The position numbers and the translations under genes were made by a program. Positions 35,351-60,819 of a stretch of 64,000 nt of DNA are shown here, piece by piece. The notes under the pieces were generated by a model. The model saw only the letters and a list, made by a program, of their open reading frames with translations. It made no database searches and was not told where the DNA came from. This DNA is from Aliiroseovarius lamellibrachiae (lineage in GTDB: Bacteria; Pseudomonadota; Alphaproteobacteria; Rhodobacterales; Rhodobacteraceae), in assembly GCF_018599245.1 (NCBI RefSeq), contig NZ_JAHEVJ010000007.1, forward strand, positions 124,001-188,000, written 5' to 3'. How positions within the stretch are numbered: the stretch's first letter is position 1; each line of letters starts with the position of its first letter.

Positions 35351-36763
35351 GTGATCGAAAACCAAGACTTCGTACCGGCCCCAGAAACCGACGTCGAAAT
35401 GTCCGAACTCGCAAAAATCGGGTCGCGACTTGCGTATGATGTCGTTGATATTGCGGGGTTCTTATCTGATGTTGATCAAAAAAGCGAAAACCAGCTGAGA
35501 TCAATTACCGGCTTGTCCCATCAGGCCAAGAATGTGCTTACCGCCAACACACATGTGCGGACATCCATGGAGGCATTGCTTGAAAACTCCCAATCCACGT
35601 TAGAAACGGTTCAGGCCTCTGTTGAGCTTGTTCGAAAAGGGGGCGGGCAATCAAAAGACATTGCAGGTTGGGTAAAGCATCTGTCAGCACAAATGTCGGA
35701 AATGGCCGAATCCTTACACGCGGTCCTCAGCGCAAATGATGATATTGCGACCATAGCCAAACAAGTGAATATCCTTGCGATCAACGCGAAGATCGAAGCC
35801 GCACGAGCTGGGGATGCGGGGCGTGGGTTTGCTGTTGTTGCTGAGGCCATTAACGAACTCTCTGGAAAAACCGCCCTTTCTGCAGAGCAGATTTCAGCCA
35901 ATGTAAGCAATCTCTCAAAGAAGGTTGAAAAGCTCAACCTAGAGACAAACAAGATCGAAAAAACCGCGGAAACAGTGCTTTGCGACTCGCAAGACGCAGA
36001 TGACGCCATGGGGCGTATCGCGCAAGCAACAGAGAAATCTGCCGCAAAAACCCAACATATCATGTCAGAAGCGGAGAAGGTTCGCGACGCGGTCGAGAAT
36101 TTTCTTCCGTCTTTTGAACAGATTGGCGCAACCGTTCGGGAAACAGCGGAAGGCGTACATTTTGTCACTCAGAAATCAGATCGCCTGATCGACTTGTCTG
36201 AGGGAATAGTCCAACGAACCGTCGCTCTCGGTGGTCGGTCTGCGGACCAACCTTTTATTGATCGTGTGCAACAGGACGCAAAGAATATTTCAGCACTGTT
36301 CAGTGATGCAATCAATCGCGGGGAAATTGATGAACAAGACCTGTTTCATCGCGAATACACCCCCATTCCAAACACAAATCCACAGCAGGTCCTAGCCCCG
36401 TTCACAACCCTAACAGATCGTATTCTACCGCCCATCCTTGAGGAAGCTTTAAAAAACGATGCGAATGTTATCTTTTGCGTGGCCATTGATGATCACGGAT
36501 ACTTGCCGACACATAATGCCAAGTTTTCAAAACCGCAGGGCGCTGATCCCGTTTGGAATACCGCCAATTGCAGAAATCGCGTTATTTTCAATGACAGGGT
36601 CGGTTTGAAATCTGGTCAATCAAAGGCCCCCTTTTTACTTCAGGTCTATCGTCGCGATATGGGGGGCGGAGAGTTTGTACTGATGAAGGACCTGTCGGCA
36701 CCCATTTTTGTTAATGGAAAACACTGGGGGGGCCTCCGTATGGGCTACCGCGCAGATGGATAA
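35351..36763 (+). CDS. Soluble methyl-accepting chemotaxis-like protein with C-terminal sensor
   Basis: 470 residues, GTG start with TAGGAGA upstream. No transmembrane or HAMP segment. Residues about 20-300 are coiled coil with the chemoreceptor hairpin tip at about 138-165 ([19 protein letters not shown]). The C-terminal domain (about 330-470) has DHGYLPTHN (381-389), [10 protein letters not shown] and [14 protein letters not shown]-type motifs are known from Cache-like sensors. It probably signals to CheA from the cytoplasm. The ligand is unknown. No che genes are nearby; an imperfect TTAA-N6-TTAA lies upstream at 35297-35310. Confidence 0.85.
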
Positions 36764-36796
36764 AAAAAACGCCGCACTCCACAAGGGAGGCGGCGT
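36761..36796 (-). terminator. Terminator for leftward transcription (40-residue gene)
   Basis: An ACGCCGC-A-CTCC stem half (36769-36780) pairs with GGAG-GCGGCGT (36786-36796) with one bulge. Reading leftward it is followed by a run of eight T (36762-36769 complement). There is no T run in the plus direction, so it serves the minus-strand small gene rather than the chemoreceptor gene. Confidence 0.75.
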
Positions 36797-36947: not shown

Positions 36948-37070
36948 TCACAACACACCAGGCAGGTGAAGAGCGGCAAACAAAACAATTAAAAGAGACA
37001 TTCCACCGATTGTATCCTGCCAAATAGTGGCGGATGAACGGGCCAATACGTCTTTCACCTGTTTCATCAT
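36948..37070 (-). CDS. 40-residue single-pass membrane protein, SOS-box controlled
   Basis: Short frame opening with ATGATG at 37070, preceded by AGGAGAG at good spacing. It encodes a 21-residue polar, amphipathic N-terminus (MMKQVKDVLARSSATIWQDT) and a hydrophobic segment (about 22-38, GGMSLLIVLFAALHLPG). A leftward terminator at 36761-36796 closes the unit. Upstream, 80 nt before the start, is a perfect GTTC-N7-GTTC. Small SOS-induced inner-membrane proteins such as SidA (29 residues, Caulobacter) inhibit division; a similar role is inferred only from size, topology and promoter. Not recognised as a named family. Confidence 0.7.
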   Translation of the reverse strand: MMKQVKDVLARSSATIWQDTIGGMSLLIVLFAALHLPGVL

Positions 37071-37149
37071 GTTCTTCTCTCCTGCTCATTATGCTGTGGC
37101 GTTAAGCCTTTGTTGCTACTTTGTTCTCATATCGGGAGCACCCTGTAAA

Positions 37150-37174
37150 GAACTTTTTAAGAACATTGGCGAAC
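37150..37174 (-). promoter_or_regulatory. LexA (SOS) box of alphaproteobacterial type
   Basis: Plus strand GAAC (37150-37153), 7 nt, GAAC (37161-37164): a perfect match to the alphaproteobacterial SOS box, GTTC-N7-GTTC on the minus strand. A third GAAC lies at 37171-37174 (6-nt gap) and a fourth at 37185-37188. The only downstream gene in either direction is the 40-residue membrane protein; recG ends (leftward) at 37193. Confidence 0.75.
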
Positions 37175-37192
37175 AAAACGAGGTGAACTTTA

Positions 37193-39283
37193 CTAACCCA
37201 CTGAAATCAAACGAATAGCTTGATCTTGTCGCATTAACCAAAGAAGAACACGCGCCGCGCGCCCTCGCTCGGTTTCAAGTTTAGGGTCTTGGGCAAGCAA
37301 CACACGGGCATCCTTCTGAGCGATCGCCATTAGACCAGCTTGGTGTTCCAAGTCGGCAACCCAAAAATTTGGAAGCCCAGATTGCGCCGTGCCAATTAGG
37401 TCGCCAGCACCGCGCATGGCCAGATCCGCCTCTGCAATAACAAATCCGTCTTCGGTATCCCGTATGGTTTTAAGCCGGCTTTCGCCACCAGCGGTCAAGG
37501 GGGCACGATAGAGCAAAACACAGGTCGACGCGTCCTGGCCTCGACCGACACGCCCACGCAACTGATGCAACTGGGCAAGCCCAAAATGCTCTGCCCCTTC
37601 GATGACCATTATTGTTGCATTTGGTACATCTACGCCAACTTCGATGACGGTGGTCGCAACCAGAACCTGGATATCCCCGTTTTGGAAGGATCGCATGGCC
37701 GCATCCTTTTCCTGCGATGGCATTTGACCATGCACAAGCCCAACTGAGGTTTCGCCCAAAGCGGCGCGCAAATGTTTGAACCGTTCTTCCGCGGCCGTCA
37801 AATCCATCACTTCACTTTCATCCACCAACGGACAGACCCAATAGGCCTGCGCCCCGTCTTTGGTAACGGCGCGAAGGCGCGAAACGACGTCATCAAGCCG
37901 ATTGGCTGAAATCAGAACGGTTTGGATTGGGCGCCGGCCCGGGGGTTTTTCATCCAACACGGAAATATCCATATCGCCATATTGCGCCAGTGACAGGCTT
38001 CTCGGAATGGGTGTTGCCGTCATAACCAATACGTCCGACGCGTTTCCCTTTTCCCCGAGAAGCATCCTTTGTGCGACACCAAACCGATGTTGCTCATCAA
38101 CAACCGATAGTCTAAGATTTTGAAATATAACGTCACTTTGGAAAACGGCATGCGTACCCACAAGGATTTGAATACGTCCGTTTTCCAATGCATCAAGCTT
38201 TTTGCGCCGATCAGCCCCCTTGTCGCGCCCGGTTAAGATATCCACAACAACACCCGCCTGCTCTGCCAAAGGACGAATGCCCGCAAGATGTTGTCGCGCC
38301 AATATTTCGGTTGGGGCCATCATCACCCCTTGCCCGCCGGCTTCAACGGCGATCAACAGAGCCATCAGCGCAACAAGTGTCTTCCCAGCCCCAACATCTC
38401 CCTGCAACAGGCGGTTCATCCGCGCGCCAGCGGCCATATCTGTGGCAATCTCTTCGATTGCCCGCGATTGCGCTTTGGTTGGGCTATAGGGCAATGCTTT
38501 CAGAACTTTTCCCTGCAACACACCAGTTGCCAAACTGACCTGGCCATGCCCCTTTCTCAGTTGGGATCTGGCCAACGCCAACGTCAGTTGATGTGCAAAC
38601 AATTCGTCATAGGCCAATCGTCGACGCGCAAGCGCGTTCGGCGACACATCATCTGGCCCCACCGGCGCATGTGCAGCTCGCATGGCGTCAATCCAATCGG
38701 GCCAATGCTCTTGCTTTTTCAATTCCGGATCGACCCATTCCTTCAACGCAGGAGCACGCGTCAAAACTTCACGAATGGCGCGGGTCATGAGCTTTGAAGT
38801 GACCCCCGCAGTTAACCCATAAACAGGTTCGAAATCAGGAATTTGCGCCACATCATTTGGCGCCACCAGAAAATCGGGATGCGCCATCTGAAAATGCCCG
38901 TCAAAGCTTTCTACTTTTCCGGAAACAACACGTTTGGTACCGACCGGAAGCTTGTCCAATAGCCAAGATGGCTGGGCATGGAAATACACCAAGGTAAAGT
39001 CGGTTAATGCATCCCGAACAATGATGCGATAAGGCGCTTGCTTGTTTCGACCGGGGTGATGGGACCGAACTTCGACTTCTACGGTCGCAACTTGTCCAGG
39101 TTCAACTTCTGAAATTGAGGCCCTGAATTTCCGGTCAATCCCGGCATAGGGCAACGAAAACAGCAAATCGCGAGGCGCCTCAATACGAAGAGCCGCAAAT
39201 GCTTTCGCGGTTTTTGCACCAACACCGGACAGGCTCTCCAACTCGGCAAATAGCGGAAATAAAATCTCGGGGCGAGCAGACAT
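37193..39283 (-). CDS. recG: RecG, ATP-dependent DNA helicase
   Basis: Branch-migration and fork-reversal helicase. 696 residues: an OB-fold wedge domain (about 50-150), Walker A QGDVGAGKT (295-302), DEQH box (396-399), motif III MTATPIPRSL, and the C-terminal motifs VATTVIEVGVDVPNAT and QLRGRVGRG. The start at 39283 (MSARPEILF) is 1 nt after the ligA stop; the ATG at 39301 would lie inside ligA. Operon ligA-recG. Confidence 0.95.
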   Translation of the reverse strand: MSARPEILFPLFAELESLSGVGAKTAKAFAALRIEAPRDLLFSLPYAGIDRKFRASISEVEPGQVATVEVEVRSHHPGRNKQAPYRIIVRDALTDFTLVYFHAQPSWLLDKLPVGTKRVVSGKVESFDGHFQMAHPDFLVAPNDVAQIPDFEPVYGLTAGVTSKLMTRAIREVLTRAPALKEWVDPELKKQEHWPDWIDAMRAAHAPVGPDDVSPNALARRRLAYDELFAHQLTLALARSQLRKGHGQVSLATGVLQGKVLKALPYSPTKAQSRAIEEIATDMAAGARMNRLLQGDVGAGKTLVALMALLIAVEAGGQGVMMAPTEILARQHLAGIRPLAEQAGVVVDILTGRDKGADRRKKLDALENGRIQILVGTHAVFQSDVIFQNLRLSVVDEQHRFGVAQRMLLGEKGNASDVLVMTATPIPRSLSLAQYGDMDISVLDEKPPGRRPIQTVLISANRLDDVVSRLRAVTKDGAQAYWVCPLVDESEVMDLTAAEERFKHLRAALGETSVGLVHGQMPSQEKDAAMRSFQNGDIQVLVATTVIEVGVDVPNATIMVIEGAEHFGLAQLHQLRGRVGRGQDASTCVLLYRAPLTAGGESRLKTIRDTEDGFVIAEADLAMRGAGDLIGTAQSGLPNFWVADLEHQAGLMAIAQKDARVLLAQDPKLETERGRAARVLLWLMRQDQAIRLISVG

Positions 39284-39284
39284 C

Positions 39285-41517
<2,233 letters not shown>

Positions 41518-60106: not shown

Positions 60107-60306
60107 CTTTCTTCCCCAATATGTTAACGACAATATAGGAAGAAACGGGGCGCAGGCAATGGGGACAGCGCTTTCTTGCGCATCTCATTTCAATCACAGG
60201 GTTTTTAGGGGGGGCTCATTGAATTTCATCCACAGAAATCCATTTCCCCCCAATGCCGCGAATGTGTAACCATACGCGCAACGTGAAGAATCGAAAGGAC
60301 GCAGCC

Positions 60307-60819
60307 ATGGCGGGCTCGCTCAATAAGGTAATGCTCATCGGCAATCTGGGCCGTGATCCCGAAATCCGTACTTTTCAAAACGGCGGCAAAGTGTGCAACC
60401 TGCGCATTGCCACGTCGGAAAACTGGAAAGACCGCAATACCGGCGAGCGTCGTGAACGCACGGAATGGCACACGGTTGCGATTTTCAGTGAAGGTTTGGT
60501 TCGGGTCTGTGAGCAGTATTTGCGCAAGGGGTCCAAGGTCTATATCGAAGGCCAGCTTCAGACGCGTAAATGGCAAGATCAGTCGGGCAACGACCGCTAT
60601 TCCACCGAAGTTGTCTTGCAAGGGTTTGGCAGCACGCTGACCATGCTTGATGGTCGCGGCGAAGGTGGCGGTGGTGGCCAAAGCGGCGGCGGTTACGGTG
60701 GCGGTCAATCTGGTGGCTATGGCAACGACCAAGGCGGCTACGGTGGCGATCAAGGCCAGGGACAAGGCCAAAATCAAGCGCCTGCTGGTGGCGGATTTGA
60801 CGACGAGATCCCGTTCTAA
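60307..60819 (+). CDS. ssb: SSB, single-stranded DNA-binding protein
   Basis: Coats single-stranded DNA in replication and repair. 170 residues: OB fold (about 1-110, [21 protein letters not shown], then [42 protein letters not shown]), a Gly/Gln-rich flexible linker (about 120-160), and the acidic tip DDEIPF that recruits partner proteins. The start at 60307 has AAAGGA upstream. A terminator follows directly. Confidence 0.96.

What the first reader, a model, noticed from the sequence alone, without database searches (positions are those of the whole stretch)
36948..37188. SOS-box-controlled 40-residue membrane protein next to recG: a SidA-like candidate
A short minus-strand frame with a good ribosome binding site encodes a polar N-terminus and one membrane helix. 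It has its own leftward terminator (36761-36796). Upstream is a perfect alphaproteobacterial LexA box (GTTC-N7-GTTC; plus strand 37150-37164) with two more GAAC tetramers. Established: alphaproteobacterial LexA binds GTTC-N7-GTTC, and Caulobacter SidA is a 29-residue SOS-induced inner-membrane inhibitor of division. Inferred: this small gene is an SOS-induced division or membrane-stress factor. It is too short for most gene callers and would be missed in annotations.
Basis: partly seen in the sequence, partly recalled or inferred. Interest (0 to 1): 0.8.

Follow-up and report, generated by a model that had tools for sequence, protein, structure and literature searches.

The report
Conserved SOS-box small membrane protein
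A tiny gene for a 40-residue membrane protein sits next to the DNA-repair gene recG with the marks of DNA-damage control, is conserved in most genera of its bacterial family, matches no protein family in the libraries searched, and may be the brake that stops cell division while damaged DNA is repaired.

Summary
The 40-codon frame (36948-37070, minus) is a real gene. A profile finds it in 206 of 248 genera of the family (one genome each) and in 4 of 289 genomes drawn from the class, all four of this family. It evolves as protein (pN/pS 0.35, against 1.0 and 2.4 in shifted frames). It lies next to recG. A GTTC-N7-GTTC box starts 66-110 nt upstream of the ATG in 132 of 134 distinct loci, but in 0 of 28 recG loci of other families. 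The box is the core of a ~69-bp conserved element with a third GTTC and an inverted, degenerate second box. lexA, uvrA and an imuA-like gene of this genome carry such boxes too. Pfam, NCBIfam, PHROGs, PDB, phage and plasmid searches gave no convincing match.

So: an apparently undescribed core membrane microprotein with a LexA-type operator. Function is inferred. A SidA-like division inhibitor is the best guess (about 0.5): no SulA above cut-off in 61 family genomes, near-invariant D and G at the membrane edge, mostly unstructured leaders, unlike TisB. Homology to SidA, LexA binding and induction are untested.

The parts
36948..37070 (-). 40-codon small membrane protein gene (stop codon included)
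   Evidence: profile match in 206 of 248 genera, pN/pS 0.35; helices 2-11 and 13-39 predicted
37079..37083 (-). ribosome binding site AGGAG, 8 nt before the ATG
   Evidence: G is the commonest base at -12 to -9 in 113 loci
37150..37164 (-). LexA-type box GTTC-N7-GTTC (GTTCTTAAAAAGTTC on the minus strand)
37171..37174 (-). third conserved GTTC half-site, 6 nt upstream of the box
   Evidence: 93-96% per base in 113 loci, one per genus
37144..37149 (-). conserved TTTACA, -35-like (role not assigned)
37112..37126 (-). inverted degenerate second box GAAC-N7-CAAC
   Evidence: GAAC-N7-NAAC at offset 38 in 102 of 113 loci; the surrounding block (TATGAGAACAAAGNNGCAACA, up to 3 mismatches) occurs once in the genome
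36761..36796 (-). intrinsic terminator of the small gene
   Evidence: -19.5 kcal/mol, z -4.9; terminator-like sites within 250 nt downstream in 41 of 113 loci against 3.0 expected from mononucleotide shuffles
37193..39301 (-). recG, syntenic upstream neighbour
   Evidence: NF008164, 1084.5 bits; found upstream on the same strand in 137 of 141 loci and 80 of 80 named loci

Best explanation
A LexA-repressed gene for a 40-residue inner-membrane protein. In undamaged cells LexA sits on the composite operator just downstream of recG and keeps the gene off (inferred from sequence). When RecA on single-stranded DNA triggers LexA cleavage, the gene is transcribed on its own to its own terminator and translated from a short leader. 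The product inserts with its positively charged amphipathic N-terminus in the cytoplasm and one membrane helix. Its small-residue face and the near-invariant acidic residue at the membrane entrance bind a membrane partner, most likely the late divisome (FtsW/FtsI/FtsN), and hold division until repair is done. Shown: gene, conservation, operator pattern. Predicted: fold. Inferred: LexA binding, induction, topology, target. I put LexA control at about 0.93 and division inhibition at about 0.5; the confidence given is for the whole chain.
For: Coding: 206 of 248 genera, 115 of 121 genomes of the order sample; 190 of 190 same-genus pairs have pN below pS. Control: box in 132 of 134 distinct loci and 78 of 80 named loci, 0 of 28 recG loci outside the family; element conserved over positions -13 to +55; boxes at lexA, uvrA and an imuA-like gene of this genome. 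Box loss goes with lexA loss: no box in 5 of 8 lexA-negative and 11 of 139 lexA-positive loci (Fisher p 0.0004, not corrected for relatedness). Protein: helices 2-11 and 13-39, pLDDT 89.9; D19 and G22 in 90 of 91, P37 in 86 of 91, no charged residue at 34-40 in 90 of 91; in 21 divergent frames after recG the acidic residue is kept (19 D, 2 E, read by eye). No SulA above cut-off in 61 family genomes, E. coli control positive. Precedent: Caulobacter SidA, 29 residues, inner membrane, acts on FtsW (PMC4211646, passages); lexA deletion there filaments because of sidA (PMC12700426, passages).
Against: No expression, binding or phenotype data. Nothing in the sequence points to the divisome rather than another membrane target, and E. 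coli has SOS membrane peptides that are not division inhibitors (DinQ, abstract; TisB, recalled). 11 lexA-positive genomes lack a strict box, five of them with no such frame found (G153, G100, G238, G098, G061). The lexA-negative genomes are mostly fragmented, and 3 of the 8 examined keep the box. The inverted box is degenerate (CAAC, not GAAC). No canonical -10 could be assigned. The 113 loci are related, so their agreement is not 113 independent facts.
Confidence: 0.5

Rival explanations
1. A LexA-controlled small membrane protein whose target is not the divisome: it tunes or protects another membrane complex (respiration, transport, envelope stress, a protease) during the SOS response.
For: All control and coding evidence applies equally. 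The conserved small-residue face and acidic residue suggest a specific membrane partner of any kind.
Against: The SOS membrane microproteins SidA, YneA and SosA of other lineages stop division; no SulA above cut-off is present here. This is argument by analogy only.
Confidence: 0.33
2. A TisB- or DinQ-like toxic peptide that depolarises the membrane and induces dormancy.
For: SOS-type control, small size, one hydrophobic helix with an amphipathic N-terminus (moment of residues 2-11: own 0.65, median 0.57 over 91); a composite operator would allow tight repression. One relative of the own genus has a well-folding leader (L003, z -2.8).
Against: Leaders are short, variable and on average unstructured (mean z 0.16 over 60 genera; own z 0.40), unlike the control of TisB mRNA (recalled). 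Constant place beside recG; no phage or plasmid copy found with one consensus query.
Confidence: 0.12
3. The box is not a LexA site: the element serves another regulator or is only a promoter, and the gene is not damage-inducible.
For: GTTC-N7-GTTC is not over-represented genome-wide; the nearly constant spacer (TYAWAAA) differs from those at lexA, uvrA and the imuA-like gene; the element matrix does not pick up the 20 other own-genome box loci fetched (best -37.8).
Against: Same half-sites and spacing as at lexA, uvrA and the imuA-like gene of this genome; box loss tracks lexA loss.
Confidence: 0.07

Closest known systems
SidA of Caulobacter crescentus
   Same: very small inner-membrane protein of an alphaproteobacterium under LexA control (facts on SidA: PMC4211646 and PMC12700426, passages)
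   Different: 40 rather than 29 residues; homology not tested; no FtsW or division data; in the class sample the profile hit only this family
YneA (Bacillus), SosA (Staphylococcus)
   Same: SOS-induced small membrane proteins that stop division (abstracts)
   Different: other phyla and longer (recalled); no sequence relation looked for
TisB / DinQ of E. coli
   Same: SOS-controlled single-helix membrane peptides (DinQ: abstract; TisB recalled)
   Different: leaders here mostly unstructured; constant chromosomal place beside recG
Alphaproteobacterial LexA regulon (lexA, recA, uvrA, imuAB)
   Same: GTTC-N7-GTTC half-sites
   Different: longer composite element with a third half-site and an inverted second box, nearly constant spacer

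Membership tests
LexA (SOS) regulon of Alphaproteobacteria | GTTC-N7-GTTC box in the promoter region | tested here: met
   37150-37164
LexA (SOS) regulon of Alphaproteobacteria | box conserved upstream of orthologues | tested here: met
   132 of 134 distinct loci, 78 of 80 named loci; 0 of 28 recG loci outside the family
LexA (SOS) regulon of Alphaproteobacteria | lexA present in the genome | tested here: met
   TIGR00498 185.8 bits at L161, with two overlapping boxes upstream
LexA (SOS) regulon of Alphaproteobacteria | LexA binding and induction by DNA damage | not testable with these tools
   needs footprint or ChIP, and RNA-seq
SidA | sequence homology to SidA | not tested
   no SidA sequence was at hand; profile A1 hit 4 of 289 class genomes, all of this family, but whether a Caulobacter was in that sample is unknown
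SidA | very short single-pass membrane protein | tested here: met
   38-43 residues in 113 loci, helix 13-39, best 19-residue hydropathy 1.99; membrane location is predicted only
SidA | binds FtsW and blocks division | not testable with these tools
   needs experiment
SulA | match to TIGR00623 | tested here: not met
   the 40-aa protein matches no NCBIfam model. In 61 family genomes 0 reach the cut-off; 7 weak hits, the own-genome one inside the imuA-like gene
TisB-type type I toxin | structured, translation-blocking leader | tested here: not met
   mean leader z 0.16, sd 1.2, over 60 genera; own leader z 0.40; L003 is an exception at z -2.8
TisB-type type I toxin | antisense RNA antitoxin | not tested
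   no transcript data

The most novel reading that the evidence does not exclude
A family-wide core SOS effector that has gone undescribed: a 40-residue membrane protein founding its own family, with a target other than the known FtsW route, held by a composite LexA operator of two inverted boxes about 38 bp apart plus a fifth half-site. The operator may also act as a roadblock to read-through from recG: no terminator-like site was found between box and gene start region in 113 loci, though only 0.2 were expected, so that test has little power.
Probability: 0.3. Interest if true: 0.78.

Novelty: new variant of a known kind. Interest (0 to 1): 0.62.

Why it matters
What halts division after DNA damage in this family (Ruegeria, Phaeobacter, Sulfitobacter and kin) was not named in the papers and listings seen here. 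A single candidate, conserved in most genera, makes that testable with one deletion and one overexpression. It also shows a core SOS-type gene that none of the family libraries searched holds.

Tried and rejected
Chance frame: rejected by conservation and pN/pS. Mobile or phage origin: no match in phage and plasmid records with one consensus query. PHROGs: three families hit by 1-2 of 66 members, best E 0.0029, taken as chance. NCBIfam 0 of 66, Pfam 1 of 66 at E 0.092, PDB 0. A consensus sigma-70 promoter: none found; by eye no forward -10 fits between the blocks.

Loss of the frame with loss of lexA is only weakly supported: lexA missing in 5 of 42 profile misses and 8 of 206 hits, p 0.05; in high-quality genomes 3 of 36 and 2 of 179, p 0.03. 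The element is not universal or of fixed length: training loci score from -10.1 to 105.3 on their own matrix, and 17 of 20 own-genus loci score only 33-51; in the members printed the second block lies one base further.

Profile misses: 42 of 248. Of 30 whose recG end was fetched, 21 have a divergent short hydrophobic frame, one (L164) has the box but the contig ends, 8 have neither; 17 have a strict box. Of four more all have some short hydrophobic frame; L305, L306 and L308 keep a D at its start, L307 does not; L306 and L308 have a box. The remaining eight had no recG hit beyond Mfd-level similarity. Frames in misses were picked by a hydropathy threshold and judged by eye. Box exceptions: L028 (contig end) and L095 (G201, a real loss; that genome has no lexA hit); among the named loci L221 and L253 (the best 80 of 133 relatives). 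recG was not seen upstream in 4 of 141 loci (L028, L071, L088, L127). In the lexA table, one locus (G517) was never tested for lexA; the script counted it as positive (11 of 140), which I correct to 11 of 139.

Literature: the listings of searches (0 papers) show no paper on this gene; only top rows are listed. PMC6473078 (D. shibae) was read in sections 24 and 29 and by passages: recG has 0 occurrences in the main text; its supplements were not read. PMC13384398, PMC12700426 and PMC4211646 by passages only. The 2004 comparative LexA paper is not held. One DOI was guessed wrongly and gave an unrelated outline.

Full report
What was checked. Taken alone the box is ordinary: 103 copies in the genome, fewer than the 155 of the reversed control pattern. 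The argument therefore rests on comparison.

The gene is real and, in the samples searched, confined to the family. tblastn with the 40 residues finds it in 31 of 61 relatives: all 21 genomes of the genus (own included), 10 of 16 other genomes of the family, 0 of 24 from elsewhere in the class. A profile of 21 sequences finds it in 206 of 248 genera of the family, one genome each, and in 4 of 289 genomes drawn from the class, all four of the family (of the 285 without a match only 20 are listed). A profile of 66 sequences finds it in 115 of 121 genomes of the order sample, all rows of which belong to the same family, with a few hits as weak as E 1.8e-4. Named relatives include Ruegeria, Phaeobacter, Sulfitobacter, Tritonibacter, Roseobacter and Rhodovulum, so I take the window to be from Rhodobacterales. 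Among 20 own-genus loci (L028, cut by a contig end, left out), pooled pN/pS is 0.35 and 190 of 190 pairs have pN below pS; the same stretch read in the two shifted frames gives 1.00 and 2.39.

It keeps its place. recG is upstream on the same strand in 137 of 141 fetched loci and 80 of 80 named loci. The downstream neighbour varies: the chemotaxis-receptor-like gene of the window was found in 6 of 30 loci, own included. The small gene thus looks monocistronic, with terminator-like sites after it in 41 of 113 loci against 3.0 expected.

The operator. Of 134 distinct loci 132 have GTTC-N7-GTTC upstream, starting 66-110 nt before the ATG; one exception is a contig end, the other (G201) a real loss. 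Anchoring 113 loci, one per genus, on the box shows a block conserved from -13 to +55: a third GTTC at -10, the box with spacer mostly TYAWAAA, TTTACA, a variable gap of about 10, then AATATGAGAACAAAGNGGCAACAAA. GAAC-N7-NAAC lies at offset 38 in 102 of 113, mostly ending CAAC. The two GTTC of the box and the GAAC/CAAC pair mirror each other about position 26, so I read this as two inverted LexA boxes, the second degenerate; that second half-sites may vary in Rhodobacter is recalled, not from a call. A matrix trained without the window's genus gives 95.6 bits here and nothing above -29.6 elsewhere in 64 kb, but it is not universal: most own-genus relatives score 33-51 and single training loci fall to -10. 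The second block, with up to 3 mismatches, occurs once in the genome.

Is it LexA? In this genome lexA has two overlapping boxes upstream, uvrA (N-terminal part seen) one 66 nt upstream and an imuA-like gene (30.5 bits, below its cut-off of 150) one 7 nt upstream, all GTTC-N7-GTTC. A further gene judged by eye to be mmcB-like also has one (no NCBIfam match). Across loci, absence of the box goes with absence of lexA: 5 of 8 lexA-negative against 11 of 139 lexA-positive. Relatedness is not corrected for, and the lexA-negative genomes are mostly fragmented. Binding and induction are not shown.

The protein. Lengths are 38-43 in 113 loci. In the 91 of exactly 40 residues, net charge of residues 1-18 averages +1.1, no charged residue stands at 34-40 in 90, D19 and G22 are kept in 90, L34 in 89, P37 in 86. 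AlphaFold2 with 66 sequences gives helices 2-11 and 13-39, pLDDT 89.9. By the positive-inside rule (general knowledge) the N-terminus should be cytoplasmic. In 21 divergent frames that the profile missed, found after recG, the acidic residue before the membrane helix is kept (19 D, 2 E, by eye). No family library, solved structure, phage or plasmid record gave a convincing match.

What it does. SidA, YneA and SosA show that SOS membrane microproteins in other lineages can stop division, and in Caulobacter SidA is responsible for the filamentation of lexA mutants (PMC12700426, passages). DinQ of E. coli shows that not all do (abstract). The family has no SulA above cut-off in 61 genomes, with E. 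coli positive as control. A lineage-restricted inhibitor would fit the pattern of unrelated inhibitors in different clades (PMC4211646, passages). The near-invariant acidic residue and glycine and the small-residue face suggest a specific partner; the mostly unstructured leader speaks against TisB-like control (L003 is an exception). None of this identifies the divisome as target, hence 0.5.

Verdict.

Noticed in passing
L153 (own genome C17:109000-111400): A GTTC-N7-GTTC box lies 17 nt upstream of a frame that looks RhuM-like by eye.
   Followed up: no
L161 (own genome C15:265500-268100): lexA has three GTTC half-sites in a row with N7 spacing, that is two overlapping boxes.
   Followed up: partly
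window 60253-60819: An ssb-like gene by eye; no perfect GTTC-N7-GTTC box stands upstream of it within 1.5 kb, and it is not beside uvrA, which lies on another contig.
   Followed up: no
L095 (G201): Of the 141 loci the only uncut one without the box; the frame is extended to 75 residues and the genome (80% complete) has no lexA hit.
   Followed up: partly
G034, G073, G103, G139, G253: Genomes rated 97-99% complete without a recG hit beyond Mfd-level similarity.
   Followed up: no
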